Below, one piece after another: positions 1,196-27,702 of a stretch of 64,000 nt of DNA (the stretch's first letter is position 1; the number at the start of each line of letters is the position of its first letter). The notes below the pieces were generated by a model. The model did no database searches and was not told where the DNA came from. It saw only the letters and a program-made list of their open reading frames with translations. A program made the translations under genes and the position numbers. Source of the DNA: a virus; the IMG/VR virus record IMGVR_UViG_3300010371_000029, positions 62,001 through 126,000 of that record; one strand, 5' to 3'.

Positions 1196-2294
1196 GAGCG
1201 GCGGCAATAAGCTCACCAACGGGTCTATAATCAAAAGCTTTGGCACGTTCAACAGACGCCTGAGACATTGTATCATATTTTTCCCCATAATCGTAAATTT
1301 CCCGCATAAATGACTTAAGCCATGAAATATCAATTGAATCCCACTCCTCTCTTGCAGTCATTAAGTCGCCGAAAGTATCAATACAACCAAACACCGGCTC
1401 TTTTCTTGCAGGGACCAAAAAGCTGGTTTCTTCAGTCATGTAATCTAAAAACCCTGTTCCTTTAGTAGCAATAGTAGGTTTACCCATAGCCATAGCTTCA
1501 AAAGCTGGGATACACCAAGCCTCCCCATAGGAGGGCATGACAAAACAATCACAGGTTGCGTGCAACCTCAAAATATCGGCGTCTGAAAGACGCTGTGTTA
1601 TTATTACCTCTTTAGCATAACTATCTATGGGTCGCAGCTTAAGACCTTCCTTGACAGAACGACAGAAATTTCGTATAATATCGGCGGATTCTTGCTTTGA
1701 TTTGCCGGGAATGTTTGACTTAATAACTAGGGAAACGGGTTCATGGGGTTCAAAGGTAGAATGAAATGCTTTAAGAAGTGCCCCAAGATTCTTTCGACGA
1801 ACAAATTCTCCAATAAAGTAGAACTTAAAAGTTCCCGCTATTTCTGGGATATGAAACGGTTCATACTTCTTTTGGTATGTGGTTATATCGAAACAATGGG
1901 GGATTACTCTTATTGGTACGTTAACCCCACTATTTTCGGCTACATTAGCACTTTGCCAATTAAACACCCACGCTTCATCTAAAGTATTTAACCGTTCGAC
2001 CCAAGAGGTAGTGACAAAATTACTACTCTCTGAGGCAAACATGCAAATATTTTTAGCTGGACCGGCATAGTAAGAATAATGAGGCAATATATGCTGAATA
2101 ATATGGGTACAGCCCTGTGGACTCTTTTTCTCTAATTCCTCAATACGGGCCGGAACCTCGTACTTGTTAGAATTCAACCTAATGGGCCGGTGAACCACGT
2201 CTAGGCCGATATGGTCCATAGCTAATATATAATTTTGGGCCGCTTTGCCCCATCCGGTTCCGTCGCCGGTTACACCGCAGTATAAGATTTTCAA
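1185..2294 (-). CDS. GT-B glycosyltransferase (GT4-like)
   Basis: The 369-residue protein has the GT4 layout: an N-terminal Rossmann half beginning KILYCGVTGDGTGWGKAA, a linker with FYFIGEFVRRKNLGALLKAF, and a C-terminal donor site (FVMPSYGEAWCIPAFEAMAMGKP). It is a probable cytoplasmic nucleotide-sugar glycosyltransferase; acceptor unknown. The start is TTG at 2294 inside a TTGA overlap with the lipoprotein gene before it. The ribosome binding site AGGAG is part of a perfect hairpin directly before this TTG (separate entry). Confidence 0.88.
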   Translation of the reverse strand: MKILYCGVTGDGTGWGKAAQNYILAMDHIGLDVVHRPIRLNSNKYEVPARIEELEKKSPQGCTHIIQHILPHYSYYAGPAKNICMFASESSNFVTTSWVERLNTLDEAWVFNWQSANVAENSGVNVPIRVIPHCFDITTYQKKYEPFHIPEIAGTFKFYFIGEFVRRKNLGALLKAFHSTFEPHEPVSLVIKSNIPGKSKQESADIIRNFCRSVKEGLKLRPIDSYAKEVIITQRLSDADILRLHATCDCFVMPSYGEAWCIPAFEAMAMGKPTIATKGTGFLDYMTEETSFLVPARKEPVFGCIDTFGDLMTAREEWDSIDISWLKSFMREIYDYGEKYDTMSQASVERAKAFDYRPVGELIAAALAV

Positions 2295-2536
2295 GGAGCG
2301 GTGCTCCTATACATAATTTCTTTATTAATACTATGTTCTTCTTTTAATAGTTGTTCAAAATCAATTTTAGACGGTTCTGAAAACTTGTATATTAAGTCAC
2401 CCTTTTTAATATAAACCCTACCCTCACCTTTTGACTGAATAACCCCATCAAACGGAATCTCGCAATACTCTTCAGTTGTATATTCAACCTTAACACAACC
2501 ACAAAACAAAATTAGAAAGATTGTACACAATTTCAT
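2291..2536 (-). CDS. small putative lipoprotein
   Basis: An 81-residue protein begins with a short lysine-headed hydrophobic stretch and a plausible lipobox (LILFCGC), so it is likely lipid-anchored in the host envelope after signal peptidase II cleavage. The mature part is acidic with a KKGDLIYKF segment. No family is recognised. It overlaps both neighbours by 4 bases (ATGA upstream, TTGA downstream), so it is translationally coupled. Confidence 0.65.
   Translation of the reverse strand: MKLCTIFLILFCGCVKVEYTTEEYCEIPFDGVIQSKGEGRVYIKKGDLIYKFSEPSKIDFEQLLKEEHSINKEIMYRSTAP
2294..2308 (-). promoter_or_regulatory. Shine-Dalgarno hairpin before a TTG start
   Basis: On the coding strand AGGAGC-ACC-GCTCCT is a perfect 6-bp stem with a 3-base loop, and the TTG start begins at its last base. 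The AGGAG that should bind 16S rRNA is paired in the stem. The same arrangement precedes other genes here (34551, 38187, 45953, 63901). Control of translation is inferred. Confidence 0.55.
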
Positions 2537-2700
2537 TTAATTGGCTCCGCATAGTGTAAAGTAACATCCTTATGATTGCCATAGATAATCTCGGCGCGGC
2601 TCATATCAAACGAAACCCCCTTCTTTTGAAGATAATCCGCAAATGCCTCTCTCACTTCTTCCAATTTAAGATTAACTTTTTTATGATTAAGTGTTTCCAT
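2533..2700 (-). CDS. hypothetical protein, 55 aa
   Basis: A compact ORF runs from ATG at 2700 to TGA at 2533, overlapping both neighbours (ATGA at its end, 14 bases at its start). It begins METLNHKKVNLKLEE and is mostly amphipathic helix followed by a short beta-like end. No family is recognised. The evidence is its exact fit in the overlap chain. Confidence 0.6.
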   Translation of the reverse strand: METLNHKKVNLKLEEVREAFADYLQKKGVSFDMSRAEIIYGNHKDVTLHYAEPIK

Positions 2701-2968
2701 TTTTCTCTTTACCTATCTTTTCATTGATTTGACGTTCTAACGCTTCCACGTCTGTTTCTTTACGTTTTCCATAAACGGTAAACCCGGCGAAATCTATAAC
2801 TTTGCGGTCAACAATCGGTTCCTCTATTGAAATATCGCTATAAACCCCATCGTAAGTGGCCCGAATGTGTTCTAAATTTTCTATCACATGGTCCAAACTT
2901 CCTAAAAGGTCCGATATCTTAAGCTCTGTAAGTTTCTCTTTAATTTCTAATTTCTTTTTTCTAGCCAT
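2687..2968 (-). CDS. hypothetical protein, 93 aa, helical
   Basis: The protein has a lysine-rich N-terminus (MARKKKLEIKEKL), a predicted helical middle (LGSLDHVIENLEHIRATYDG) and an acidic C-terminal helix. It overlaps the intein-bearing glycosyltransferase before it by 8 bases. No recognisable domain; perhaps a small accessory protein. Confidence 0.65.
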   Translation of the reverse strand: MARKKKLEIKEKLTELKISDLLGSLDHVIENLEHIRATYDGVYSDISIEEPIVDRKVIDFAGFTVYGKRKETDVEALERQINEKIGKEKNGNT

Positions 2969-5759
2969 ATATATATTCTAAATCTCGTTTCTCTTTTGTA
3001 GAGCACCGCAGGTTTTCCCAGTGGTTCAAGGCTTGGTTAAGGGACAAACAATAATCTACGACGGTTTGCCGATTAAACGGTTGACCTTTATTAAAACCTT
3101 CTACCCAAGTTCCATAGTTCAAATTTTTAATTAACTGCAAAGTTAAATGGGTATAAACCTTATCCTGAAGTCCCCATATGTTAGCTACGCACCATTGAAC
3201 GAATTGGGCATTATTCAGTCCTGGTGGAACGTTTAAGTTAGGAGTAAAGTTTCGTCGGGGGGAATACCACGTTTCTTTATGGTTCGGCACATCCAAGCTA
3301 TCGAAGTAATCTTCCCATTTTTTAGCCGTTTTATCATAGGTGTAATGTTCCAACGCGCCGGCACGGGAGGCTAGACCCATCTTTGCGCGTTCTTCGGGGG
3401 CTAGATTGAAGAATTGATAAAGCATCTGTACGAATGCTTCATTGTCTGGAAGAGCCCGCATACACCCAGTTTCAGCTTCTTTAAAATAACGTTGCACTGG
3501 AATAGACCACCCATTAACTTTTCTTATTACGTCCGACATTGCTGAATAATTTACTGACATAACGGGTACAGCACATCCAGCGGCCTCTACCTGCGGAATT
3601 CCAAAACCTTCTCCAATGCTATATTGAATATACACATCAAATATATTCATTACTTTTGCGAGAGTTTCCCTGTCTACACCATTATTAACATTTGGCATAT
3701 GAACAGTATTATGCTTACAACGTGGACAAATAGCTTGGGAATCTAGAAAGAATGAAGGAAATACAAATTTACAATTAGTACATGTATAGGTAAAGAGAGT
3801 TTTCGCCCCAACTCCATATTCTTGAATTAATGAACAAAGGTCCCAGCCAACATCGGGGTAACTGGTATGAATATAAAGATAGGTTTTATCAACTAAATCT
3901 TGTCGCCCTAATTCTTTGCAAGTTTGAAGATACTTAGAGAAGCTCTCTATCAGGTCTGGATATAATTTTCTTTTTTGGTTACGCATGACCGTTCCAATAA
4001 TGAAAAGGTCATTCTTAATACCAAATGAGCGACGAAGAGCTTCTTTATCCTGGACCGGTTTAAATATCTCGGTTTCAATCCCAGGCGGGAAAGAACCAAT
4101 TACATTAATATTACCATTACCATCTTTTCTTAATACGTCCGCCCCCCAATCGGTATATGAAGCACATCCATCTAATGTGGAATATGTTTGTAACCATTCG
4201 GTTGCTTGTGGGATAGAATCTACCGTTGGCATCCAAATAAATTTATAGAACGGTCTATATGGAGATTGTGCCCACATACAATCCATCCACCAATCGCGAA
4301 TTGAACAATTATGTACATTTGCATGCTCCAAAACATAACTATTATCTTCTTCAACTTCTATATTATATATTAAACCTTTGTAATCATAATGAAATACCTT
4401 TTCCACAGACGCTAATATTTGATTATTAACGTAATGTGTTTTTCTAGCTCTACGTTTAGATACATAAACTTTCTGAAATCTTTCAAATTCATATTTATTG
4501 CAAACTTTATGTAACTCTTCAGCAGAAGAACCATATCCCTCTACATCAAAAATGTCTCCGTTATTTAATTTGTTTTTTCTGTATTGTATGTTAGTAGGTA
4601 TACCTATACTACCACATAGTAATCTAAAACCGTTTGCAATTTTACGTTTTGCACTACAAAAAGAAACAGTATTATTTTTATAACAACCGTCAGTTCTTAC
4701 TGAACCGCTAATAAAACCACGTTTAACACTTTCATTTGAAATCCAAATTTCTTTGGGAATATTTCCATTACACCAATTTTTTAAGAATTCTGCTAACAAG
4801 CTAGAATTTACATTAACTTGTATAGCAAATCTATCCTTTACTGGATATGCACAACCAACTAAATTTAAATATGATTCAAATAAATTTAAAGCATCTTCTG
4901 CAAATCTTTGTTCTGTGCCATTAAAAGTTATTCCAACTCCTGAATTACTTATATGTCCATCGCCAAATATATAACCCAAAAGTCTAGCAAAATTTTCGTC
5001 TAAAACAATATATTTAAAAATAGGATTACAATTCTTGTTTGGATTAGAACAAATTAAACCATCTTTTTCTATATAATTACTAACATAACTGGAAATATGA
5101 ATAATCTGTTCAAAATCACTTGGTTCATTATTAGGAGGACTTAAACAAATTAAGTCACCCTTTTTTATTTGAGAAATAGGGACAAAAGTTGGTTCGACAG
5201 CATTGTAAATTTTTCTTATACTCTTTTTTTGATTTGTTTGTCGAAGTTTCTTGTGAATTTGTATTGGATGATTACCAGTTAATCTAAGTGAATTTTTACA
5301 TCCATGAAATTTTACTCCGTACATTAATCCTTCAAAATAATTTCTATAAGTAGCGTTTACTCTTCTAAATCTTCCTTTGTGAGTTAAAACAAAATCTCCA
5401 ACTACTATTTCTTCAATTTTTTTATATCCATTTATTGTTAATACCATTTGCCCAGGAGGAGAACATACAACATCTGGCTTAAAGTTTAAACAAGCTTGTT
5501 CAAATTTATGCTTCCCAAATTGATTCTGTATGTCGCTATTGTAAACCTTATTCTCTTCTTCATTTTTGGGAAGAACTCCATAAAATTTCCAAGGTAACAT
5601 ACTAACTCTAGGGTCATTGTCGGAACCATAGGAGCCCAATTCTGCCAACTCGTATTTTCCTGTTTCATAGAGGCGCTTCATTACCTCCATTCCGAAAACA
5701 GAAAAACCTGTATTAAGGAAACTAGCTTCATTAACTAAGAGAATACGCTTTTTATTCAT
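2961..5759 (-). CDS. GT-B glycosyltransferase interrupted by an intein
   Basis: The 932-residue ORF encodes a GT4-like enzyme of about 546 residues after removal of an intein (residues about 99-484). The extein N-terminus is a Rossmann half (KKRILLVNEASFLNTGFSV). The C-terminal part carries GTVMRNQKRK and the donor motif YSIGEGFGIPQVEAAGCAVP. A zinc-ribbon insert sits between them (CTNC and CPRC, 17 residues apart). Spliced exteins join as FKPDVV-CSIRDWW. Start ATG at 5759 overlaps the sigma factor stop by 8 bases. The acceptor is unknown. Confidence 0.9.
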   Translation of the reverse strand: MNKKRILLVNEASFLNTGFSVFGMEVMKRLYETGKYELAELGSYGSDNDPRVSMLPWKFYGVLPKNEEENKVYNSDIQNQFGKHKFEQACLNFKPDVVCSPPGQMVLTINGYKKIEEIVVGDFVLTHKGRFRRVNATYRNYFEGLMYGVKFHGCKNSLRLTGNHPIQIHKKLRQTNQKKSIRKIYNAVEPTFVPISQIKKGDLICLSPPNNEPSDFEQIIHISSYVSNYIEKDGLICSNPNKNCNPIFKYIVLDENFARLLGYIFGDGHISNSGVGITFNGTEQRFAEDALNLFESYLNLVGCAYPVKDRFAIQVNVNSSLLAEFLKNWCNGNIPKEIWISNESVKRGFISGSVRTDGCYKNNTVSFCSAKRKIANGFRLLCGSIGIPTNIQYRKNKLNNGDIFDVEGYGSSAEELHKVCNKYEFERFQKVYVSKRRARKTHYVNNQILASVEKVFHYDYKGLIYNIEVEEDNSYVLEHANVHNCSIRDWWMDCMWAQSPYRPFYKFIWMPTVDSIPQATEWLQTYSTLDGCASYTDWGADVLRKDGNGNINVIGSFPPGIETEIFKPVQDKEALRRSFGIKNDLFIIGTVMRNQKRKLYPDLIESFSKYLQTCKELGRQDLVDKTYLYIHTSYPDVGWDLCSLIQEYGVGAKTLFTYTCTNCKFVFPSFFLDSQAICPRCKHNTVHMPNVNNGVDRETLAKVMNIFDVYIQYSIGEGFGIPQVEAAGCAVPVMSVNYSAMSDVIRKVNGWSIPVQRYFKEAETGCMRALPDNEAFVQMLYQFFNLAPEERAKMGLASRAGALEHYTYDKTAKKWEDYFDSLDVPNHKETWYSPRRNFTPNLNVPPGLNNAQFVQWCVANIWGLQDKVYTHLTLQLIKNLNYGTWVEGFNKGQPFNRQTVVDYCLSLNQALNHWENLRCSTKEKRDLEYIYG
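4308..5465 (-). mobile_element. intein with LAGLIDADG endonuclease in glycosyltransferase
   Basis: The intein starts at Cys99 (CSPPGQMVLTINGYKKIEEI) and ends HANVHN before Cys485 of the C-extein, about 386 residues. The splice junctions are canonical: Cys1, the block B motif TGNHPIQIH, penultimate His, terminal Asn and a Cys nucleophile. The middle holds two LAGLIDADG-type motifs (LLGYIFGDGHIS and RGFISGSVRTDG), so it is probably a homing endonuclease. Splicing and homing are inferred from the motifs. Confidence 0.92.
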
Positions 5760-6210
5760 AGTAGCGACTTAATTTATTTATCGCGGCTTTAAGGATTTTT
5801 GAAACTTTTTTGCGGCTGAAACCAACATTTTCCGCAATTTCATTAAGGGCACAGCCCTCAGTAAACCGTAATATGATAATTCTGTTTTCAGTCTCACTTA
5901 GAACGCCAATTAGATTTAATGGAGGTTGTTCGACTAAAGTAAATGAACGTTGTACTTCAAATTTCTTTTTTACTTCTTTCTTAAGGGTCCTACCTATACA
6001 AATACTGGCATATGCGGCCCACTCAACCTGCCTATTCGGGTTGAAAGACCTAATCGCCAAAAGTAGCGCGATAGCCCCGACTTGGCACATGTCTTCAAAG
6101 GAACACGATGTTCCACCAAACTTCTTAGCTTGAGTCACGACTAACCCAAAATTCTCCTCCAAAAGTCGTGACTCAAGCCGAAGCTCTTCTTTAGACGGCT
6201 GCCGCTTCAC
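5752..6210 (-). CDS. RNA polymerase sigma factor, sigma-70 family, short
   Basis: The 152-residue protein has a region 2-like segment (VGAIALLLAIRSFNPN followed by WAAYASICIGRTLKKEV) and a C-terminal region 4 helix-turn-helix (TEGCALNEIAENVGFSRKKVSKILK). Regions 1.1 and 3 are missing, as in many phage and ECF-size sigma factors. It probably redirects host RNA polymerase to phage promoters. The start is GTG at 6210, overlapping ssb by 20 bases. Its target promoter is unknown. Confidence 0.85.
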   Translation of the reverse strand: MKRQPSKEELRLESRLLEENFGLVVTQAKKFGGTSCSFEDMCQVGAIALLLAIRSFNPNRQVEWAAYASICIGRTLKKEVKKKFEVQRSFTLVEQPPLNLIGVLSETENRIIILRFTEGCALNEIAENVGFSRKKVSKILKAAINKLSRYYE

Positions 6211-6541
6211 GCTCTACCGTAGGGAGCTTTTGAAACGTTCCTACCCGCAACTTCAGCCGGCTATACTTGACCCCATTCTTCTCCCAGCTTTCCGTCTTAA
6301 ACCGACCCTTAACCATAATCCTATCCCCCTTATTAAACTGTTCGGCAATGGCTTCCGCACCGGAGTCCCACGCCTCACATTCAATAAAAGCCGCCTCATT
6401 CATCCCTTCGCTTGATTTACTATTAATTCTGGTATTAATTACCATACAAAAATCTACAACAGACGTACCGGAAGGCAATTTGCGAAGTTCGGGCGCACGG
6501 ACAATGTTTCCGACACCATAAAAATCATTAACACTCGCCAT
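6191..6541 (-). CDS. ssb: single-stranded DNA-binding protein
   Basis: The 116-residue protein matches the bacterial SSB OB fold: N-terminal MASVNDFYGVGNIVRAPELR, then FIECEAWDSGAEAIAEQFNKGDRIMVKGR and SWEKNGVKYSRLKL. It coats single-stranded DNA at the fork. The usual acidic C-terminal tip (DDDIPF-like) that recruits host proteins is absent; it ends EREAAAV. This suggests it does not use the host SSB interactome. It lies between the sigma factor and the polymerase module. Confidence 0.92.
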   Translation of the reverse strand: MASVNDFYGVGNIVRAPELRKLPSGTSVVDFCMVINTRINSKSSEGMNEAAFIECEAWDSGAEAIAEQFNKGDRIMVKGRFKTESWEKNGVKYSRLKLRVGTFQKLPTVEREAAAV

Positions 6542-6542
6542 A

Positions 6543-7064
6543 TTATTCTCCAGCTACAATTTCTAAGTTATAAAGCATTCCATATCCTACCTCTACCTTT
6601 TCTTTTGCGGCTAATCTCAAAAAATCAGGGGGAAAATTTTCAGATTTTGCTTGTACGAATATATTATTCAATACAGTTTCTTTATTAAAATCTTCCTCTT
6701 CTCGCGGTGGAGACAAGGGTAATCGACCTACTTCCTCGTTTTTATGATTGTAATAAAAAATAAATCGGGGCGAGTAGTTAATTTTTTTACAAAGTTTTTC
6801 AATGTGGCATTGAATTACGGGCCGCACCGAATAAAATGGACAAACTACAAAGGACGGGTCTTCACAAGTTACATCTCCTATAAAAAAGCCAGGGTCACCA
6901 GTAATCTCTAAGTCAGTATGGTCAATCACGGTATAATTAAAGAATGACTCTGAAAACTTATCATTTTTGGGTAATCTAAGACTAATATAATCCGGTTCTT
7001 CTTCTTTTACAATTACCCGATAGTCATGCTTTGTAAGAAGTTCTCTGACCTTCTGGTCAATCAC
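6543..7064 (-). CDS. hypothetical protein, 173 aa
   Basis: The frame is open to 7190, but a GTG at 7064 is preferred. It has AGGTGG 7 bases upstream and makes a GTGA overlap with the end of the polymerase C-terminal gene. The product starts VIDQKVRELLTKHDYRVI and has Cys-containing mid-region segments (VTCEDPSFVVCPF). No family is recognised. Its place between dnaE and ssb suggests a replication-linked role. Confidence 0.75.
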   Translation of the reverse strand: MIDQKVRELLTKHDYRVIVKEEEPDYISLRLPKNDKFSESFFNYTVIDHTDLEITGDPGFFIGDVTCEDPSFVVCPFYSVRPVIQCHIEKLCKKINYSPRFIFYYNHKNEEVGRLPLSPPREEEDFNKETVLNNIFVQAKSENFPPDFLRLAAKEKVEVGYGMLYNLEIVAGE

Positions 7065-8626
7065 AGTTGAACCACCTTGTTTATTATGAACGAATCTTTC
7101 TTTGAATCTTTGACACCAGCCAATAATACTGTGTTGCCTTCGTACAATAAGTTGCCGAATTCCGAATATTCGTTGCACCATAAAACACAATTTCTATAAG
7201 AGCCGTTAATGTCGCTAATTTCTACAAACCCCATTAACCGCCCCTTATTCTCACCTTTTTTAACCGGATATGTTCTCAATGTATCAATATTACAAGCTAC
7301 TACCAAATTCATCTTACTTGGTGAAGCATCTATATCGGAAACTAAATGTGTGGCTGCGCTTATATCACAGGATTCCACCGCACTTACAGTAACCGGAACC
7401 CCTAATAATTGTTTTTCAGATTGGGCCATCATTAAAGGGTTATCATCAAGGGACATGGGTGGGCATCTTAACGTATTGGCTAAATCCATCAAAATTTTAA
7501 CTCTGTTCTTCGTGGCCGCGCCGCCGCCCTCTTTTTTGGGGGCCGCACACTGTTCTATAAGGTCGGCCAAGTTACTATTTTCTTTTAATTTTGTTTTTAC
7601 GAAACCTACTTCTTTCTCTGTTAAACTATTAAGTTTACTTAACTCAAATTCCATCCTCTTTCGCGATATACCTAAATAATCTAAGGACCCAGATTCTATA
7701 AGTCCTAACGCAATATCAACACTAACATTGTAGAGTAGATTGAACAAAACATCAATCCAGTCTTTAAAATCTCTTAATAATTCTACCAACTTCTCAGTTG
7801 CTCGTCCGCCCATTCCTTTAATGTTTCCGAGCCCAAAGTACACAACCCCGTTGATAACGTCAAAATCCAGATTACCCTTTCTTAGGTCCGGTCCTCTTAC
7901 TTCAATCCCCATACTCTTACAATTATAGACTAATTCGTTAACTTCCTCAAGGGGTCTTTGCTTCTCGCGGGCCATTTTTAACCAAGATTTGGCCCATGGT
8001 AATGGAAAATGTACTTTTATAAAAGCAGAAAAATATGATTCCAGCCCGTAACCGATAGCGTGGGCTTTATTGAATGAATATCGTTGCGATTTCTCAATCC
8101 AAGAGAAAATCTCGGCGGCTATCTCTGGTGAAACAATTTTGGCTTTGGCTGCCCCTTCTATAAAATCCTTCTTACAAGACGCCATTAAATCGGCTAATTT
8201 CTTTCCCATAGCCTTTCTTAAATTATCAGCTTGTACAAGATTAAATCCAGCTAAATCTTGCGCTATTCTCATCGCCTGCTCCTGGTATACCAGGATAGAG
8301 TTCGTGGGTTCAAGAATAGGGCGAAGTGCTTCGTGAATGTAAGAGGGTTGTTCTTCACCCCGTTTAACTTTTACATACTTATCCGCCATACCGCTTTCAA
8401 GACAGCCGGGGCGAAGTATACTTATTAGTGCTGCAAGTTCTTCAAGACACCTAGGACTACTTCGTTTAGCCCAGGTCATTCCAAGAGGCTTTTCTAATTG
8501 AAATACACCTTTTGTATTTCCAACACAGATTAGGTCCCATGTCGCTGGACAATTAAGGTAAACTTTCTTAATATCGAAATGGCCTTCTTCGTAGAAACAG
8601 CCACAATCAAACGATATAAATCTCAT
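7061..8626 (-). CDS. dnaE: DNA polymerase III alpha subunit, C-terminal half (split gene)
   Basis: The 521-residue protein begins where the 11064-12833 gene stops. It carries GVFQLEKPLGM, ISILRPG, the fingers motifs YQEQAMRIAQDLAGF and RKAMGKK, YSFNKAHAIGYG, and an OB-fold C-terminus (GFVEISDINGSYRNCVLW). It lacks the PHP domain and the three catalytic aspartates, which are in the other half, so the two products must assemble for activity. The ATG at 8626 lies inside the HNH gene by 20 bases. No intein halves are visible at either edge. Confidence 0.93.
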   Translation of the reverse strand: MRFISFDCGCFYEEGHFDIKKVYLNCPATWDLICVGNTKGVFQLEKPLGMTWAKRSSPRCLEELAALISILRPGCLESGMADKYVKVKRGEEQPSYIHEALRPILEPTNSILVYQEQAMRIAQDLAGFNLVQADNLRKAMGKKLADLMASCKKDFIEGAAKAKIVSPEIAAEIFSWIEKSQRYSFNKAHAIGYGLESYFSAFIKVHFPLPWAKSWLKMAREKQRPLEEVNELVYNCKSMGIEVRGPDLRKGNLDFDVINGVVYFGLGNIKGMGGRATEKLVELLRDFKDWIDVLFNLLYNVSVDIALGLIESGSLDYLGISRKRMEFELSKLNSLTEKEVGFVKTKLKENSNLADLIEQCAAPKKEGGGAATKNRVKILMDLANTLRCPPMSLDDNPLMMAQSEKQLLGVPVTVSAVESCDISAATHLVSDIDASPSKMNLVVACNIDTLRTYPVKKGENKGRLMGFVEISDINGSYRNCVLWCNEYSEFGNLLYEGNTVLLAGVKDSKKDSFIINKVVQL

Positions 8627-9602
8627 TAATACAATCTCTATTTACTTTAAATTTTCCTGGCTCTAATTCTTTTGATTCTAAAGAAGACGGTATTTTAGAT
8701 ATATCAATTACATTATTTTCGGCTATTAATTTACAAAAAGCTAAAAAAATATCTTGAGGTAAACACCCCTTAATTCTATTTACTGTTTTATGAAGCCATT
8801 GCACATTTCCCTCCTCATAATCAGAAAAACTACTTATCCTATCTAAAGAAGCAGTTCCATGATATGAATTCTTGTTAAGTCTTCCTTTCCTTTTAGAAAT
8901 TTCTATAGGAAGACCACTAAGAGCACATTTTCTATCTTGTTTTAAAAATAATTCCCAAACATATTCTGGAGTTATTGTAAAAGATAATCCTCTTCTCTTA
9001 GCCATATCTCTAATAATATGCCAGAAGGTAACCCCTATTTCTTCATATCCTCTCCAAGTAATATACTGTTCGTTAACAATATTTAAATCACACCCACAAG
9101 ATGTTAATATTTTATTTTTTAAAGCTATATCCGCTATATCAACATAATTACCACAAACACATTTACAAAGCCAAAACATTTTTGGGTAAACAACACTTCC
9201 ACCATTTTTATCGACAACTGTAAGTTTTCCAAATTGTTGGTTTCTAAAATCAGTATATGGTTCCTTAATTTTTTTACGTTTTTTAATGCCGGCTTTATCT
9301 ATCGCTCGATATATTACTCTCTTACTAAGATTTAAAGCTTTTCCTATTTCTGCTGCTGACATCTTCATATCTACATACATTTCTTGTATTTTTTCTGGAG
9401 ATGCTATTAAAAAAGCTTCATTAAGTTTATTTTTCCTTTGTTCTTGTCGTAAAATATGAATTCCAAATTTTCTTAAATTCCTATGAATAAAACCGTGATT
9501 TCTTCCTATAGAATGAGCTATTTCTTCGACAGTTTTTTCATGAACTAAGTATTGCTCTTTTAACCATTCTTCATTTTTACCTAAATCATCAGAAAAATAC
9601 AT
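8607..9602 (-). CDS. HNH-type homing endonuclease, free-standing
   Basis: The 331-residue protein begins with helix-turn-helix-like segments (EEIAHSIGRNHGFIHRNLRKFG, SAAEIGKALNLSKRVIYRAI). A zinc-binding stretch follows (CKCVCGNYVDI ... SCGCD), then an HNH-like core (QDRKCALSGLPI, TASLDRISS, NVQWLHKTVNRIKG). This domain set is typical of mobile phage endonucleases. It lies inside the split polymerase region and overlaps the C-terminal polymerase gene. It has its own leader with TAGGAG before the ATG. Its core is nearly identical at DNA level to the HNH gene at 21124. Confidence 0.9.
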   Translation of the reverse strand: MYFSDDLGKNEEWLKEQYLVHEKTVEEIAHSIGRNHGFIHRNLRKFGIHILRQEQRKNKLNEAFLIASPEKIQEMYVDMKMSAAEIGKALNLSKRVIYRAIDKAGIKKRKKIKEPYTDFRNQQFGKLTVVDKNGGSVVYPKMFWLCKCVCGNYVDIADIALKNKILTSCGCDLNIVNEQYITWRGYEEIGVTFWHIIRDMAKRRGLSFTITPEYVWELFLKQDRKCALSGLPIEISKRKGRLNKNSYHGTASLDRISSFSDYEEGNVQWLHKTVNRIKGCLPQDIFLAFCKLIAENNVIDISKIPSSLESKELEPGKFKVNRDCINEIYIV

Positions 9603-9612
9603 TGTTTTCTCC

Positions 9613-9640
9613 TATAGTATAAATCATATTTTGTACTATA
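9613..9640 (-). promoter_or_regulatory. inverted repeat in leader of HNH gene
   Basis: On the minus strand TATAGTA and TACTATA flank 14 bases directly before the TAGGAG ribosome binding site of the endonuclease gene. The 59-base intergenic region holds little else. It may be an operator or an RNA hairpin limiting endonuclease expression; a similar AATAGTG/CACTATT repeat precedes the endonuclease at 46038. Confidence 0.35.
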
Positions 9641-9661
9641 AGAGTATACACTTTAAGTAAA

Positions 9662-10294
9662 CTAACTATTAAAATTTATTTTTGGTTGTATTTTACGAGC
9701 GATTGTTAGGAATTTAATTAAAATCTGAGCCGTTATTTTTACATCTACCAACGCATCATGCAAATTACCTATTGATTCTATTTTCATATAATCCTTTAAT
9801 GTGCCAAGTTTTAGATTCGGTACTGCTTTAGAATTTTCAAAGAAATAATTAGCCAAAAACAAAGTGTCATAAGGTATGAAGTAGAATAAAGCGGCCTCTC
9901 CCCTTTCCTTGTTCCAAGGCCCATATTTCTGACACATTTTGTTTATAAATTTACTGTCAAAGTTTACAATATTGTGCCCCGCTGGAATTGGACGGGTCCA
10001 GGCTTGCCCCGGCTTGTAATTAAAACGTTCTACGTATAGGGCGAAGTCTGCCCAAACTGTTTGAGGTAATGGTGCTGTTGAAAGCTTCTCTAATGAATGC
10101 CCGTTTATCTCTAAGGCTTTAGGGTCGGCGGTCTCAGGCGTTAAAGGACGAATTAAAGAATTGAATTCAGAGTTAGGAATAATTGTAAGATTCTTAGAAT
10201 TGATTGCTACTGCGGCGATTTGAACTATTTCGTGTTTTTCATGGTCCAGACCGCTTGTTTCCACATCGTAGCACACGATTGTATTGTAATTCAT
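9662..10294 (-). CDS. DnaQ-like 3'-5' exonuclease (DEDDh)
   Basis: A 210-residue protein with the exonuclease motifs in order: Exo I CYDVETSG, Exo II AGHNIVNFDSKF, and Exo III NLHDALVDVKIT with the DEDDh histidine. It probably proofreads for the split polymerase III alpha subunit, since it lies between the two halves. Start ATG at 10294 overlaps the small ORF before it by 4 bases. Confidence 0.9.
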   Translation of the reverse strand: MNYNTIVCYDVETSGLDHEKHEIVQIAAVAINSKNLTIIPNSEFNSLIRPLTPETADPKALEINGHSLEKLSTAPLPQTVWADFALYVERFNYKPGQAWTRPIPAGHNIVNFDSKFINKMCQKYGPWNKERGEAALFYFIPYDTLFLANYFFENSKAVPNLKLGTLKDYMKIESIGNLHDALVDVKITAQILIKFLTIARKIQPKINFNS

Positions 10295-10542
10295 TTTTCC
10301 TCAGGAAATATGTCGATTGGCCCGTTGTATTCATGACATTTATTCTCCCAATGTATTATTGTGTCTTCAATTGTAGCTTGAAAAGAGTTATTAAAATAAT
10401 TTTTTGAACCTATTAAAATTACATCATATTTTACTAATTTTTTCTCCTTATCTATAGAAAGAACACGAAATATATAGAAACTATCTTGGAAATATTTAGG
10501 AAAAGGCCATTTAGACCGTGTGATTTTTAGAAGTCGCTGCAT
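10291..10542 (-). CDS. LLKITR-tag family small protein (1)
   Basis: The 83-residue protein begins MQRLLKITRSKWPFPKYF, the M-x-x-LL(K/R)(I/L)TR signature shared by nine genes here. The rest has beta-rich segments (FYIFRVLSIDKEKKLVKYD) and ends with a helix and NGPIDIFPEE, closely resembling the next gene (TGPLDVF). It is one of three tandem copies between the polymerase halves, next to the exonuclease. Function unknown. Confidence 0.75.
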   Translation of the reverse strand: MQRLLKITRSKWPFPKYFQDSFYIFRVLSIDKEKKLVKYDVILIGSKNYFNNSFQATIEDTIIHWENKCHEYNGPIDIFPEEK

Positions 10543-10833
10543 TTAGAATCTTTCAATTCTAGTATAATTCTTCTGTGCTTCTTTATAACTACTCCCAAAA
10601 ACATCTAAAGGACCGGTATATTCGTTATATTCCTTTCCCCATCTTGCCTCAAATATGTCTATCCTGTCTCTAAAGCCCGAACAGTAATAACCTTTAGCTC
10701 TCCAAGGAGTTCTTTTATACATACCGTCGTAATAAATCATTCCGTCTTTACGGAACAATATTCTAAAGATGAAGTCGCTAGACTCAAAATATGTGGGCAA
10801 CTTAAAACGGGTTATTCGTAGTAGTTGATTCAT
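10543..10833 (-). CDS. LLKITR-tag family small protein (2)
   Basis: A 96-residue paralogue beginning MNQLLRITRFKLPTYFE. It shares with its neighbours a strand-rich middle (FIFRILFRKDGMIYYDG), a helix (FRDRIDIFEARWGKEYNEY) and the TGPLDVF ending. It overlaps the copy before it by 31 bases and is followed by the third at one base spacing. Codons for the tag differ from the other copies (CTACTACGAATAACCCGT), so the tag is kept at protein level. Function unknown. Confidence 0.75.
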   Translation of the reverse strand: MNQLLRITRFKLPTYFESSDFIFRILFRKDGMIYYDGMYKRTPWRAKGYYCSGFRDRIDIFEARWGKEYNEYTGPLDVFGSSYKEAQKNYTRIERF

Positions 10834-11080
10834 CGGGAAAATTTGGTATTTCGTTTGGTGGGCAGTCTTTTATTCCGTAATAACTATTATCATTATATAA
10901 GTTTAAAAAGGTAGATAATCTATCTTCCCAATTTGTAGGACAAGGTTTATTTTCTTTTATATAAAATACATTATAATAAACAACTCCGTCTATTATATCA
11001 TTAATACGATAATAGCATTGGCTACATTTCAAATATTTAGGGAGAATTTGAGTTCTCGTTAATTTAAGTAATGCCTGCAT
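10802..11080 (-). CDS. LLKITR-tag family small protein (3)
   Basis: A 92-residue paralogue beginning MQALLKLTRTQILPKYL, with CYYRINDIIDGVVYYNVFY and a C-terminal helix (WEDRLSTFLNLYND). Its ATG lies 17 bases inside the end of the N-terminal polymerase gene, so it starts exactly where that half polymerase stops. No known domain is recognised. Confidence 0.72.
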   Translation of the reverse strand: MQALLKLTRTQILPKYLKCSQCYYRINDIIDGVVYYNVFYIKENKPCPTNWEDRLSTFLNLYNDNSYYGIKDCPPNEIPNFPDESTTTNNPF

Positions 11081-12833
11081 TGACCATCTCGCTCGCCATT
11101 TGAATTTTATCTAAAATAGCAACTCCAAGCACATCAAATTTTACTAAACCCGCCGCCTCGCCGGAGGATAAATCATATCCGCAAATCATTTCGCCCGTTC
11201 GTTCATCCAAAATCATAGGGGCGACTGTATCAAGAGGTTCCGAAGATATGACCAAACCACACGCATGTCGGCTTTTATTAACGAGGGTTCCTTCAAGGGC
11301 TATAGCTTGTTTGAAGTAATCGGCGTATTCCCCGACTATATCATTTCCTTCTAATTGGGCCAATCCCTCAAAATCCTCTGGTTTATGTTCTAAGCACCAC
11401 CGTATAATGGAGGAATCCCCGGTTTCTTCCTCCATTTCTTGCAAGTCGCCCATTATACGTTGTTCGTCTGGGATGCCACGGGTTAAATTATTAATCTCCT
11501 CGAATGATAAGGCACCATAAGCGCGAATTACCGCTTTTAGGGCGGACCTTCCTTGTAATCGTCCGAACGTTACTATTTGTGATACTTTATCCCTACCATA
11601 TTTAGTGCGAATATATTCAATAACGCTGTCGCGTCCAGATACCGGAAAATCAGTATCTATATCGGGGAGTGCAACTCTATCTTTCGTGTTACGCCCCGCG
11701 TTATAGAACCTCTCAAAATATAGACCGTACTCGATAGGGTCGCAACTAGTAATACCTATTAAATAAGCAGTGAGACACCCACTAACACTACCTCTACCCA
11801 CCCCAGGAAGTTGCCCCTGAGATTCGGCATATCGTATGTAATCTTCCACAATTAAGAAATAATCTGCCAGCCCAGCATTCTCAAAAACTTCAAGTTCGTG
11901 CTTAATTCTTTCTACATATTCTCCCTCTTTTTCTACAGATATTATCCCTTTTATTTTATTTCTCCAACCCGCCCGGCATAATTCCCTAAGTTGTTCATTA
12001 GGTTCGGCCACCGGAAATTTGGGCAACAACGTTTTACTAAGAATGGAAAAGGTTTCACAGCGGTCAGCTATTTGGGCCGCGCCGGCTATTTCTTGTTCTG
12101 ATAGAACTTTCCTTACCTCATCTTCTCCCCGGAAATGATTGGTTCCTTTAGGAACCTTATCTATCGTCACACCTAAATCATTAGCAAGTATTACTCGATG
12201 GTTTATATCATCTTCTGGTTCGCAGTATAGACAATTAAACAGTCCCACGGTTTGTAATTTAAGTTCAGAGGCGGTTTCCCGCATTATATCAGCGGTAAGC
12301 TCACAATCGCCGTCTACCCCCAGATAGAACCTGTCCCCAAAAATATCCCGAAATAGATTACTTTCTTTAATTAAATCTTCTTTAAAATCCGATTTTAAAG
12401 CTTGTTTAAGACTCCAGGGGTCCGAACCGTAATACGGTCCATCGAATAGGATAGCTCCTATGGAACTATCTCGGTATCCATTTATACAAATCAACCCTTT
12501 GGAATAGTTAGAAAGAATTTCATGTGTAGCTTGCGGCTCTTTCTTAAAATTCTCAGGTTTATTACTTTGGGATACAATTTTTAATAAATTTTTGAACCCG
12601 GCAAGTGTACTCGCCAATAATAGTACGGTGGGACCTCCCATTAGGGCTTGTTCCAACCCAAAGATTGGCTTAACCCCCTTTTTCTGCGCCGACTGATAGA
12701 ATTCTACCGCCCCTGATAGTGAGTTTAAATCGGTTAGAGCGACAGTTTCGCCCTTTTCAATTAGGGCATCTGGTGGACTTAGACCATAATTCAAACTGTA
12801 GAAAGAATGGTTACGTAGGTTTATAAACTTCAT
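11064..12833 (-). CDS. dnaE: DNA polymerase III alpha subunit, N-terminal half (split gene)
   Basis: The 589-residue product starts at ATG 12833 (MKFINLRNHSFYSL), the usual PHP-domain start of DnaE. It contains GVGRGSVSG, the catalytic pair in LPDIDTDFP, and the third aspartate in LVKFDVLG, and stops about 20 residues later. The PHP motif is degenerate (RNHS instead of HxHS). The fingers and OB domain are in the gene at 7061. The break lies in a linker of the normal protein, so the pieces could form one enzyme. Between them lie three LLKITR genes, the exonuclease and an HNH gene. Confidence 0.93.
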   Translation of the reverse strand: MKFINLRNHSFYSLNYGLSPPDALIEKGETVALTDLNSLSGAVEFYQSAQKKGVKPIFGLEQALMGGPTVLLLASTLAGFKNLLKIVSQSNKPENFKKEPQATHEILSNYSKGLICINGYRDSSIGAILFDGPYYGSDPWSLKQALKSDFKEDLIKESNLFRDIFGDRFYLGVDGDCELTADIMRETASELKLQTVGLFNCLYCEPEDDINHRVILANDLGVTIDKVPKGTNHFRGEDEVRKVLSEQEIAGAAQIADRCETFSILSKTLLPKFPVAEPNEQLRELCRAGWRNKIKGIISVEKEGEYVERIKHELEVFENAGLADYFLIVEDYIRYAESQGQLPGVGRGSVSGCLTAYLIGITSCDPIEYGLYFERFYNAGRNTKDRVALPDIDTDFPVSGRDSVIEYIRTKYGRDKVSQIVTFGRLQGRSALKAVIRAYGALSFEEINNLTRGIPDEQRIMGDLQEMEEETGDSSIIRWCLEHKPEDFEGLAQLEGNDIVGEYADYFKQAIALEGTLVNKSRHACGLVISSEPLDTVAPMILDERTGEMICGYDLSSGEAAGLVKFDVLGVAILDKIQMASEMVNAGIT

Positions 12834-12916
12834 TTTTGTCCACTTATCATCCAGCACCAAGCCACAGTCGCGCAAATAACGGCTACAGCAGCAAACACAC
12901 ATTCAGGTGTATTCAT
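12830..12916 (-). CDS. tiny membrane peptide, 28 aa
   Basis: An ORF from ATG at 12916 to TGA at 12830 encodes MNTPECVFAAVAVICATVAW plus eight residues, a single hydrophobic helix. It overlaps the gene before it (CTATGA) and the polymerase start after it (ATGA), the coupling style used throughout the window. That fit is the main evidence. Function unknown. Confidence 0.45.
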   Translation of the reverse strand: MNTPECVFAAVAVICATVAWCWMISGQK

Positions 12917-13110
12917 AGATTCTCTATATCCACGATAAGTTGTTTGAACATATTTTTAATATTAGTGAACATATCCGGTATTATATTTTCTATCCCCTGA
13001 ATCTTTTGTTTAATTTTATTCTTAATTTGTAGAATTTTCTTTTTTGCTAGATAGATAGCGCCTCCTCCACCAATTACTATTCCTAGAAAAAAAGCGAGTA
13101 TCGCTAACAT
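12913..13110 (-). CDS. small membrane-anchored protein
   Basis: The 65-residue protein has an N-terminal transmembrane helix with a glycine run (LAFFLGIVIGGGGAIYLAKKK) and a basic amphipathic tail (ILQIKNKIKQKIQG). The topology is likely tail-in-cytoplasm. It overlaps the macrodomain gene by 7 bases. No family recognised. Confidence 0.6.
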   Translation of the reverse strand: MLAILAFFLGIVIGGGGAIYLAKKKILQIKNKIKQKIQGIENIIPDMFTNIKNMFKQLIVDIENL

Positions 13111-13586
13111 GCTTTCGCCACCTTTTTGTTAATTACTATAAATCTATCATCAAAGACTTGGTTTAATTCTGGTCCTATATCTTTCCAGTCTAATCCTCCT
13201 AAACCACAACCAAGTCTAGGTAACAAAATTCTGGTCCACTGAAGAACATTGGCCACTCCCACTAATTGACGGGCCATATCTAATATTAAACCGGGCGAAC
13301 TAGGCTTGCGCCAATCGTACTTAGTGGGGAAACCAACGACATAGGGGGAATGCTCTCCTAGTAAATCGGTAAATTTATTAACTAAAATAGTGGGGACTTT
13401 GAGTTTTTGAATAGCCGCGCCCCACACTAGGTCAATATCTTTAATAGCCGTTTTAAAATCTAGGGCTAATCCGGCCCCCATTACTAATCTACCGTCAGAT
13501 TTAACTATTAAATTAATGGGACAGACCAGTGCATTGTTTCTAGAATCCGCCCCTTCAATCCAAATATTACCTTCTTGCTCTAACAT
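13104..13586 (-). CDS. macrodomain protein (ADP-ribose binding)
   Basis: The 160-residue protein spans one macrodomain. It has the nucleotide-binding loop VMGAGLALDFK near residue 35, an internal VVGFPTKYDW, and the conserved LLPRLGCGLGGLDW, as in Poa1p/ALC1-type domains. Such proteins bind or hydrolyse ADP-ribose derivatives. In a phage this could erase ADP-ribosylation imposed by a host defence or process NAD-derived signals, but that is inference. Confidence 0.85.
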   Translation of the reverse strand: MLEQEGNIWIEGADSRNNALVCPINLIVKSDGRLVMGAGLALDFKTAIKDIDLVWGAAIQKLKVPTILVNKFTDLLGEHSPYVVGFPTKYDWRKPSSPGLILDMARQLVGVANVLQWTRILLPRLGCGLGGLDWKDIGPELNQVFDDRFIVINKKVAKAC

Positions 13587-13603: not shown

Positions 13604-14149
13604 TTATCTAAACTGCTGTGTCCAAAAACCACTATAGCCACCAACACCAATTCGAGTAAAGTTAGGGTTTAATAGATTAGCCCTATGTCCCGGCGAATTA
13701 TACCACGTCCTCGTGACGTTTTCCGGGTTTGGCTGTCCTTGTGCAATATTTTCTCCAGCCCATCCTCCCGTTCCCCCATGCCTAAAACCGTAAACGTGTC
13801 TCATATTATAACAGTGGCGATTAGCGGTAATCTGTAGGGCTCGGTCTGGAATAAGTGGTCGTAACCCATGCAACGCGCGGTAAAAATTGGCCCATCGAAC
13901 CATTTGAACTTCTTCGTGAGTATAAAAGGACCAACATACTATAGGATTCTTTATTACTCCGCCTTCTTGGTAGTCCCCACTTACATTAACTTGTTCGCCC
14001 CAAAGCTCTTCTAGACTCTTTTGTGGTATATCGAGTTTATACGAACCAACATTATCAACTTTAAGTCGCGGGCCGTCAGTGTCTTTATAAAGTGTTCCAC
14101 TCTGAGAAAACGGTACGGTTAAAGCGATAATTAAAAGCAATACTTGCAT
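13604..14149 (-). CDS. secreted CAP-domain (SCP/PR-1-like) protein
   Basis: A 181-residue protein with a signal peptide (MQVLLLIIALTVPFSQS) and a CAP domain: MVRWANFYRALHGL, CYNMRHVYGFRHGG, WAGENIAQG and WYNSPGHRANLLNPNFTRIGVG. These are the usual CAP signatures with putative metal-binding histidines. It is exported; the role of CAP proteins in phages is unknown. Possibly it is a cell-envelope or virion factor. Confidence 0.85.
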   Translation of the reverse strand: MQVLLLIIALTVPFSQSGTLYKDTDGPRLKVDNVGSYKLDIPQKSLEELWGEQVNVSGDYQEGGVIKNPIVCWSFYTHEEVQMVRWANFYRALHGLRPLIPDRALQITANRHCYNMRHVYGFRHGGTGGWAGENIAQGQPNPENVTRTWYNSPGHRANLLNPNFTRIGVGGYSGFWTQQFR

Positions 14150-14159
14150 TATTTACTCC

Positions 14160-14423
14160 TTACTTAGATACAGTTTCCTTAACTTCTTCAGCTTTGCTCT
14201 TGTATAGATATTCCGGTATGTCCAGTTCTACAAACTCGGAAAAATCGTCGTGGTCGTAATATTGAGCCGCGCCCAATACTTGAATGTTCTTAAATTTAGT
14301 TCCGTCAAACCAAGCAATATGGGGCGTTCCATCGGCAGGCCCAAGTCCCTTTCCTTCCTTAACATAGACGTAATAGGGGCCTTCGCGAAGAGTCAAACCG
14401 TTTCCAAGGTCAACAGTATTCAT
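14160..14423 (-). CDS. hypothetical protein, 87 aa
   Basis: The start is taken at ATG 14423, which forms an ATGA overlap with the LLKITR gene before it; an earlier in-frame ATG at 14441 lies inside that gene. The product is acidic and beta-rich (LTLREGPYYVYVKEGKG, HIAWFDGTKFKNI), with an acidic C-terminal helix. No family is recognised. Confidence 0.65.
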   Translation of the reverse strand: MNTVDLGNGLTLREGPYYVYVKEGKGLGPADGTPHIAWFDGTKFKNIQVLGAAQYYDHDDFSEFVELDIPEYLYKSKAEEVKETVSK

Positions 14424-14629
14424 ATCCAATAATCTCCACATTCTAAACCTTTAGTAATAACATAAATTGAGTAATCAGTAGTATAAACTGTCCCACTCCA
14501 TTTTGATAATAATCTACATTTAACATAACCTCCTTTAAATTCAATAATCGTAATATAATAATATTGAGATTCAAAATTAAGAGGAATTTCATTCTCGGAT
14601 GGTCTAGTTATCCTTAATAATTCTAACAT
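14420..14629 (-). CDS. LLKITR-tag family small protein (4)
   Basis: A 69-residue protein beginning MLELLRITRPSENEIPLNF, followed by alternating strands (YYYITIIEFKGGYVKCRLL). It is the shortest copy and lacks the C-terminal helix of the others. It lies 3 bases after the Dam-type methyltransferase gene. Function unknown. Confidence 0.72.
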   Translation of the reverse strand: MLELLRITRPSENEIPLNFESQYYYITIIEFKGGYVKCRLLSKWSGTVYTTDYSIYVITKGLECGDYWI

Positions 14630-26873: not shown

Positions 26874-27264
26874 ATGCGGCTCTAATGATTTGTTGCCAGT
26901 TTTCTTCCTGGTCCCAGGGCAAAATTGCTAATTTAATCCCATTAAGTTCGCAAAGTCTTTTCTTTTCAGAATCTCGTTTAAGGGAAGCCCGGAAGCCCCC
27001 CATATTTCCATGAAAACGTTCACAGTACACGAAATGTTGCTGTCCGTGAACTTCAACGCCAAGCCGTTCGGACGGCAAGAAAAAGTCAAGGTAAAGAGAA
27101 GTAGAAGCACCCGGCAAGTGTACTTCTTCAGCCGCTATGCAGAAAGGAAAGAGACGTTTTAGTAACGTCCTGCAAATGATATGTGGGCGGCTTTTTAATC
27201 GTTCAAGGTTTGTTTTAGGAAGGGACAACCGATATTCGCGGCCATCTAAACCTTTAAATTTTAT
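26863..27264 (-). CDS. Vsr/DUF559-like PD-(D/E)XK endonuclease, probable ATA start
   Basis: The core LYLDFFLPSERLGVEVHGQQHF, then LKRDSEKKRLCELNGIKL, is that of small Vsr/DUF559-type nucleases (D, E-x-Q catalytic pattern). A TTG start at 27228 gives 121 residues. The frame upstream encodes KFKGLDGREYRLSLPKT, which resembles the N-terminus of related phage nucleases as I recall them. The only start there is ATA 27264 with GAGAGG 6 bases upstream. Likely role: DNA nicking in recombination or repair. Confidence 0.75.
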   Translation of the reverse strand: MKFKGLDGREYRLSLPKTNLERLKSRPHIICRTLLKRLFPFCIAAEEVHLPGASTSLYLDFFLPSERLGVEVHGQQHFVYCERFHGNMGGFRASLKRDSEKKRLCELNGIKLAILPWDQEENWQQIIRAAYDN

Positions 27265-27481
27265 GAGGGGCCTCTCTATTTAACCATTCTATAAATTTAT
27301 CTAAATACTCCCAACTTTCTGGTTGCCCCTCTGGTACAGAAAAAGATTTATGATGATTATATCCATATACAACATTATCTTTTATTCTAGTTATAGTTAC
27401 AAAATCTACACCTGTTTTAAAAACATATGTACCAATTAAATCAGAATAATTTGGTCTAGTTATTTTGAGTAAATTATACAT
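27254..27481 (-). CDS. LLKITR-tag family small protein (5)
   Basis: A 75-residue protein beginning MYNLLKITRPNYSDLIGTY. The body (VFKTGVDFVTITRIKDNVVYGY) matches the next copy (LIGTY/IIGTY and VVYGY/RIYGF), so these two are recent tandem paralogues. It ends with a helix (WEYLDKFIEWLN). It lies between the Vsr-like nuclease and recA. Function unknown. Confidence 0.75.
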   Translation of the reverse strand: MYNLLKITRPNYSDLIGTYVFKTGVDFVTITRIKDNVVYGYNHHKSFSVPEGQPESWEYLDKFIEWLNREAPHKI

Positions 27482-27702
27482 TAACTAATTTTCCAAATTC
27501 TACCACTTTTTAAAAGTCTGTGAAATTCTTCTAAAGTGGCCGACCTTTTTAAATCTGGACTGTTACTATGAAATCCATAAATTCTTTCATTATCTACGTT
27601 TTGAATAATTAGGTCCACGCCATATAATGCAAGTAGATTTGACCGATAAGTCCCAATAATTGAATCCCTAGGATTCCTAGTTAATTTTAATAAGGCGTTC
27701 AT
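27481..27702 (-). CDS. LLKITR-tag family small protein (6)
   Basis: A 73-residue paralogue starting MNALLKLTRNPRDSIIGTY, with VDLIIQNVDNERIYGFH and a C-terminal helix (LEEFHRLLKSG). It shares one base with its neighbour and overlaps recA by 4 bases, so it is co-translated with recA. Function unknown. Confidence 0.75.
   Translation of the reverse strand: MNALLKLTRNPRDSIIGTYRSNLLALYGVDLIIQNVDNERIYGFHSNSPDLKRSATLEEFHRLLKSGRIWKIS

What the first reader, a model, noticed from the sequence alone, without database searches (positions are those of the whole stretch)
7061..12833. DNA polymerase III alpha split into two genes with five genes between
Seen: the N-terminal gene has the PHP domain and all three catalytic Asp (LPDIDTDFP, LVKFDVLG). 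The C-terminal gene has the fingers and OB fold. They are 2.4 kb apart, with three LLKITR genes, a DnaQ-like exonuclease and an HNH endonuclease between. No intein halves are visible, so this is not the cyanobacterial split-intein DnaE, which breaks at another site. Known precedent: homing endonucleases split nrdA and DNA polymerase genes in T4-like phages. Inference: a mobile insertion split the gene and the halves now assemble.
Basis: partly seen in the sequence, partly recalled or inferred. Interest (0 to 1): 0.75.

Follow-up and report, generated by a model that had tools for sequence, protein, structure and literature searches.

The report
Phage replicase split around its proofreader
In a large group of uncultured phages the gene for the main DNA-copying enzyme has long been cut in two, with the gene for a proofreading exonuclease sitting between the halves; the DNA-cutting gene seen in this window arrived later and is not what made the cut.

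Summary
The split is real. Gene 11064-12902(-) holds PHP, palm and all three catalytic Asp. Gene 7061-8626(-) holds fingers, HhH and OB fold. Together they cover one Pol III alpha chain: E. coli DnaE residues 4-573 and 583-896 by sequence, and the OB region by fold. They are 2.4 kb apart, without intein or detectable intron, and no other A-, B- or C-family polymerase is in the 130-kb phage record. The homing-origin story does not hold. In 149 of 149 IMG/VR relatives with both halves in view (122 distinct), and in 49 of 49 from a second scan (overlapping contigs), dnaE is split at the same linker and a DEDDh DnaQ-like exonuclease gene lies between the halves. The usual order is dnaE-N, a ~59-aa gene, dnaQ, dnaE-C. 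At most 8 of 122 carry an endonuclease there. These sequences form one clade, separate from the intact phage polymerases compared; N, DnaQ and C co-evolve (Mantel r about 0.91) and are under strong purifying selection. The HNH gene (GC3 0.15) and LLKITR genes are later arrivals. Best reading: an ancestral split replicase whose halves reassemble, co-expressed with its proofreader. Assembly is inferred. Split phage Pol III alpha was known; this conserved dnaE-N/dnaQ/dnaE-C cassette was not found described.

The parts
11064..12902 (-). dnaE-N: PHP + palm half of DNA polymerase III alpha (612 aa as listed; likely start Met24 at 12833); catalytic D414, D416, D590
   Evidence: Pfam PHP and DNA_pol3_alpha; aligns to E. 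coli DnaE 4-573; AlphaFold pLDDT 89.7, pTM 0.88; Foldseek best hits are Pol III alpha; Asp in all 122 sequences with the column filled
9662..10294 (-). dnaQ-like DEDDh 3'-5' exonuclease, 210 aa: the conserved gene between the two dnaE halves
   Evidence: RNase_T 5.8e-20; PHROG 192 'DNA polymerase exonuclease subunit'; D10, E12, D113, H179, D184 invariant in 123 sequences; found between the halves in every relative with both halves in view
7061..8626 (-). dnaE-C: fingers + tandem HhH + OB-fold half of DNA polymerase III alpha (521 aa)
   Evidence: DNA_pol3_finger and HHH_6; aligns to E. coli DnaE 583-896; AlphaFold pLDDT 91.3, pTM 0.84; full-length Foldseek match to Pol III alpha plus OB-domain matches
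8607..9602 (-). HNH endonuclease gene (331 aa), a later insertion at the dnaQ/dnaE-C junction; its 3' end overlaps the start of dnaE-C by 20 bp
   Evidence: PHROG endonuclease / HNH matches; GC 0.288 and GC3 0.148 against 0.37-0.42 and 0.35-0.36 for dnaQ and the dnaE halves; absent from this junction in most relatives
10802..11080 (-). LLKITR-family small gene 1; its start overlaps the 3' end of dnaE-N by 17 bp
10543..10833 (-). LLKITR-family small gene 2
10291..10542 (-). LLKITR-family small gene 3; overlaps the dnaQ start by 4 bp
6191..6541 (-). SSB gene downstream in the same replication module; in L379 an SSB-like gene directly follows dnaE-C
   Evidence: PHROG 44 single-strand DNA binding protein; L379 ORF 5290-5676, read by eye

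Best explanation
This is the phage's replicative DNA polymerase, a C-family (Pol III alpha) enzyme permanently encoded as two polypeptides, with its proofreading exonuclease gene between them. The N subunit carries the degenerate PHP domain and the palm with all catalytic Asp. The C subunit carries fingers, HhH and OB fold. The break lies in the linker between the last palm helix and the fingers (E. coli residues about 573-583). The halves most likely bind each other without a covalent link and rebuild one active site, with the adjacent DnaQ-like DEDDh protein proofreading in trans as epsilon does for E. coli alpha. The fission is ancestral to a whole clade of uncultured phages. The HNH endonuclease and the three LLKITR genes entered the cassette later in this lineage. 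Shown: split, domain content, conserved gene order, shared ancestry, purifying selection, co-divergence, predicted folds. Inferred: physical assembly, polymerase activity, proofreading partnership.
For: 149/149 IMG/VR loci with both halves in view (122 distinct) are split here with dnaQ in the gap. A second scan with an N-half DNA motif gave 49/49, partly on the same contigs. The split+dnaQ sequences form one clade (SH-aLRT 100) apart from the intact phage and bacterial-type alphas compared. Catalytic Asp invariant in N, DEDDh invariant in DnaQ. pN/pS 0.03-0.21 for N, Q and C in 14 pairs. Mantel r 0.91-0.92 among N, Q and C distances, permutation maximum 0.12. dnaE-C starts within 60 nt of the dnaQ stop in 108/122, often overlapping. 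No PolA or PolB match in this record or in 15 relatives, and only dnaE-N of this type. Each half models well and matches Pol III alpha. 72 of 73 scorable bacterial dnaE loci are intact at this junction.
Against: No complex was modelled or purified. The window is the longest branch of its clade (1.05), so its exact place is unsure. 81 of 118 clade sequences keep all seven PHP ligand positions tested, so loss of PHP activity and dnaQ are not tightly linked. No clamp-binding motif was recognised and no beta-clamp match was found in this record, so how DnaQ docks is unknown.
Confidence: 0.82

Rival explanations
1. A homing endonuclease inserted into an intact dnaE and split it in this lineage, as proposed by the first reader (mobE/nrdA in Aeh1, seg/gene 43 in T4-like phages).
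For: An HNH gene is in the gap and is compositionally foreign. Endonuclease VII-like or HNH genes recur in the gap in 5 to 8 of 122 relatives. Homing endonucleases are documented as splitting phage genes (PMC2988022, PMC3653736).
Against: At least 114 of 122 relatives carry the same split with no recognised endonuclease. The endonucleases differ in type and side of dnaQ. Splits at the same linker in Fowlmouth, Cuke and phiT1 also lack one. PMC2988022 itself notes that an endonuclease may invade an already split gene.
Confidence: 0.06
2. The ancient fission was itself caused by insertion of dnaQ, perhaps carried in by a now lost endonuclease, into an intact dnaE, rather than by fission first and dnaQ recruitment afterwards.
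For: dnaQ is in the gap in every relative with both halves in view and co-diverges with both halves.
Against: No intact sister with the pre-insertion state was identified; Fowlmouth, Cuke and phiT1 show that splits at this linker can persist without dnaQ.
Confidence: 0.35
3. The 2.4-kb stretch is an intron, or the halves are joined by an intein or trans-splicing, to give one polypeptide.
For: The glycosyltransferase at 2961-5759 in this window carries an intein-like insertion; HNH genes often live in group I introns.
Against: No intron family hit in the region; no Hint or intein motif in either half; the gap in relatives is the constrained dnaQ coding sequence; dnaE-C usually has its own start overlapping the dnaQ stop.
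Confidence: 0.03
4. The pair is a decaying pseudogene and the phage uses a host or other polymerase.
For: The window is divergent and its PHP domain is degenerate (2 of 7 ligand positions).
Against: All palm and exonuclease catalytic residues kept; pN/pS 0.03-0.21 in relatives; primase, DnaB helicase and SSB genes present; no other polymerase found.
Confidence: 0.03

Closest known systems
Split minimal DNA polymerase III alpha of group 2.2 jumbo phages (PMC7824862)
   Same: Phage Pol III alpha encoded as an N-terminal catalytic protein and a separate C-terminal template-binding protein, proposed to reconstitute one enzyme.
   Different: Those are minimal versions without the other Pol III domains, encoded by distantly located genes, accompanying a family B polymerase. 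Here PHP, HhH and OB are kept, the genes are clustered with dnaQ between them, and no PolA or PolB was found.
Two-gene Pol III alpha of actinobacteriophages: Mycobacterium phages Fowlmouth and Cuke; Microbacterium cluster EF (PMC7302621) and FreddieHg
   Same: Two adjacent genes together make one alpha chain; in Fowlmouth and Cuke the break is in the same palm/fingers linker.
   Different: Halves directly adjacent, no dnaQ between; separate branch of the tree. FreddieHg breaks at another place, between PHP and palm.
Rossellomorea phage phiT1 gp20/gp18
   Same: Same linker split, with a small gene (49 aa) between.
   Different: No dnaQ in the gap; groups with other polymerases in the tree.
Split gene 43 (43A/43B, family B) of Aeromonas phages 25 and 44RR, and mobE-split nrdA of Aeh1 (PMC2988022)
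   Same: An essential phage enzyme split into two genes whose products reassemble; 43A/43B co-purify and are active.
   Different: Other polymerase family; lineage-level splits, some caused by homing endonucleases; here the split is clade-wide and precedes the endonuclease.
Cyanobacterial split-intein DnaE
   Same: Pol III alpha encoded in two genes.
   Different: Joined by protein trans-splicing at a different site; no intein here.
PolC of Gram-positive bacteria
   Same: A C-family polymerase with a DEDDh exonuclease physically tied to it.
   Different: In PolC the exonuclease is a domain within the polymerase chain; here it is a separate gene between palm and fingers genes.

Membership tests
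C-family DNA polymerase (DNA polymerase III alpha) | Pol-beta-like palm with three catalytic Asp | tested here: met
   D414, D416, D590; Asp in all 122 clade sequences with the column filled
C-family DNA polymerase (DNA polymerase III alpha) | PHP, fingers, HhH and OB domains present | tested here: met
   Pfam; fold matches to Pol III alpha along both halves; split over two chains
C-family DNA polymerase (DNA polymerase III alpha) | Polymerase activity | not testable with these tools
   Needs purified proteins
DnaE with a metal-binding PHP site | Canonical PHP metal ligands | tested here: not met
   Window keeps 2 of 7 tested positions; 81 of 118 relatives keep 7 of 7
DnaQ-like DEDDh exonuclease (epsilon) | D-x-E, D, H-x4-D motif set | tested here: met
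   D10, E12, D113, H179, D184 invariant in 123 sequences
DnaQ-like DEDDh exonuclease (epsilon) | Binds alpha and the clamp | not testable with these tools
   No complex could be modelled; no clamp motif recognised by eye
Split-intein DnaE (cyanobacteria) | N- and C-intein halves at the break | tested here: not met
   No Hint sequence at either end; FNKAH site intact inside dnaE-C
Intron-interrupted phage gene | Self-splicing intron between the exons | tested here: not met
   No Rfam intron hit at gathering or permissive threshold
Gene split by a homing endonuclease | Split present only where the endonuclease is or was inserted | tested here: not met
   Same split in at least 114 of 122 relatives without a recognised endonuclease
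Split minimal Pol III alpha of jumbo phages (PMC7824862) | Minimal catalytic halves, distant genes, accompanies family B polymerase | tested here: not met
   Full domain set, clustered genes, no PolB or PolA in this record or in 15 relatives

The most novel reading that the evidence does not exclude
The clade uses an obligate three-subunit replicase, palm chain + exonuclease + fingers chain, in which the exonuclease made between the halves helps them assemble. That would be a third way of tying proofreading to a C-family polymerase, besides a separate epsilon bound to alpha and the built-in exonuclease of PolC.
Probability: 0.35. Interest if true: 0.75.

Novelty: new variant of a known kind. 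Interest (0 to 1): 0.62.

Why it matters
Replicative polymerases are among the least tolerant proteins, yet here a clade of uncultured phages has kept its only recognised polymerase in two pieces through deep divergence, always with a proofreader gene between the pieces. It gives a natural, ready-made split Pol III alpha for studying how the palm and fingers come together, shows that this linker breaks repeatedly (at least three groups in the tree), and makes a direct test possible of whether proofreading subunits help polymerase assembly. It also warns that an endonuclease found in a split gene may be a late guest and not the cause.

Tried and rejected
Homing insertion as the cause of the present split (rejected: relatives have the split without endonuclease). 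Group I or II intron (Rfam). Intein halves. Alternative genetic code: the junction genes end in ordinary TAA or TGA codons, not pursued. Conserved 'KRLLQMET' leaders before dnaE-C in some relatives: judged an overlapping-frame reading of the dnaQ end. Single-protein scans of IMG/VR found nothing; only alignment queries worked. The genome-contig scan returned about 31%-identical, chromosomal-type alphas and no member of the clade, so it gave no host. PHP loss as the driver of dnaQ recruitment: not supported, most relatives keep the ligands. A paired N-C complex prediction was not possible with the tool rules.
Full report
On the minus strand the window carries dnaE-N (11064-12902; likely start 12833) with PHP and palm, and dnaE-C (7061-8626) with fingers and HhH. 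By sequence the two align to E. coli DnaE 4-573 and 583-896 without overlap. AlphaFold models of each half, built from alignments of 34 sequences, have mean pLDDT 89.7 and 91.3 and match Pol III alpha best in the PDB. The C half aligns along its full length to alphas with the OB domain, and OB-fold domains appear among weaker hits. There is no visible intein and no detectable intron.

The 130,268-base phage record has one dnaE-N and one dnaE-C, and no family A or B polymerase or beta clamp match. Primase, DnaB-like helicase, UvsX-like recombinase and SSB matches lie in the window. The split pair is therefore probably the replicase. The record may be incomplete.

The decisive evidence is comparative. 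Alignment-based scans of IMG/VR with the N half and with the C half gave 149 loci with both halves in view, 122 after removing repeats. All 149 are split at the same place and all have a match to the window's DnaQ between the halves on the same strand. The median gap is 868 bp. The usual order is dnaE-N, one gene of about 59 aa, dnaQ, dnaE-C. A second scan with a DNA motif of the N half alone, which does not select for the C half or for dnaQ, gave 49 of 49 scorable loci with split and dnaQ between, none intact; many of these are on the same contigs, so the sets overlap. As a contrast, 72 of 73 scorable bacterial loci are intact at this junction, and the one exception is an overlap that looks like a frameshift.

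In a tree of joined N+C sequences the 92 split+dnaQ representatives form one group with support 100, apart from intact phage polymerases and a bacterial-type alpha. Fowlmouth/Cuke and phiT1, also split at this linker but without dnaQ, fall elsewhere, as does FreddieHg, split at another place. The window is the longest branch within its group. This is a quick tree with long branches, so outer joins are unsure. Distances of N, DnaQ and C agree strongly (Mantel r 0.91-0.92, permutation maximum 0.12), and pN/pS in 14 close pairs is 0.03-0.21 for all three. The three palm Asp are present in all 122 sequences with the column filled, and the five DEDDh residues in all 123. In 108 of 122 loci the first start codon of dnaE-C lies within 60 nt of the dnaQ stop, often overlapping it, which suggests translational coupling. 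Fifteen larger relatives have dnaE-N of this kind and no PolA or PolB; one (G007) has two copies, both with the same cassette.

The HNH gene is thus a guest. Its GC3 is 0.15 against 0.35-0.36 for dnaQ and the dnaE halves. In relatives endonucleases appear in 5 loci by tool evidence (L097, L137, L155 by similarity to this HNH gene; L137, L161, L170 by Pfam Endonuclease_7) and in 3 more by eye (L108, L134, L176), on either side of dnaQ. The gap is a recurrent landing place. Homing endonucleases with the Endo VII motif are known (PMC6083498). Invasion of an already split polymerase gene by an endonuclease was raised as a possibility for gene 43 of Aeromonas phage 25 (PMC2988022). Whether a homing event or the arrival of dnaQ caused the original fission is open.

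Mechanism. The most likely working is non-covalent reassembly of palm and fingers chains into one polymerase, with DnaQ proofreading in trans. Assembly, activity and partnership are inferred. The window's PHP keeps only 2 of 7 tested ligand positions, so it is probably not an exonuclease itself, but 81 of 118 relatives keep all 7, so dnaQ does not simply replace PHP.

Known background. Split phage Pol III alpha is not new: a minimal split version with distant genes beside a family B polymerase was described in jumbo phages (PMC7824862), and Microbacterium cluster EF phages have two genes for alpha (PMC7302621). The conserved dnaE-N/dnaQ/dnaE-C cassette as the only recognised replicase of a broad uncultured clade was not found in the papers searched; subscription papers are mostly not held, and named isolates in the phage collection reach only about 31% identity.

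Noticed in passing
window 10291-11080, 14420-14629, 27254-27702, 28726-28986, 30934-31215 (all -), and record positions 2045-6348, 125954-126812: Sixteen small genes (32-97 aa) in the 130-kb record start with M-x-x-L-L-[KR]-[IL]-T-R, conserved at protein level although codons differ, with diverged bodies. Function unknown.
   Followed up: partly
window 2961-5759 (-): Group 1 glycosyltransferase gene carrying an intein-like insertion with LAGLIDADG and splicing-domain matches.
   Followed up: no
window 34577-38041 (-): Ribonucleotide reductase large subunit of 1154 aa with about 300 residues between its two matched parts (aa about 297 to 607); possibly an intein.
   Followed up: no
relatives, between dnaE-N and dnaQ (e.g. 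L031, L048, L124): A conserved gene of about 59 aa with a pattern like VGxxFxxNxxEYxKxxxVRVSCCRSxNA occupies the gap in about half of the relatives; the three LLKITR genes lie at this position in the window.
   Followed up: partly
L038, L039, L067, L070, L078, L079 gaps: A uracil-DNA glycosylase-like gene sits between dnaE-N and dnaQ (Pfam UDG for L039, others by eye).
   Followed up: no
G007 (L081, L379): One 206-kb record carries two copies of the split dnaE/dnaQ cassette.
   Followed up: partly
start of dnaE-C in relatives: 70 of 111 dnaE-C proteins have a CGC motif near the N-terminus, upstream of the part shared with intact alphas; the window has FDCGCFY, modelled with two short strands.
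   Followed up: no
window 13104-13586 and 13604-14149 (-): By eye, a macro-domain-like gene and a CAP/SCP-like gene just upstream of the cassette; not confirmed by a family search.
   Followed up: no
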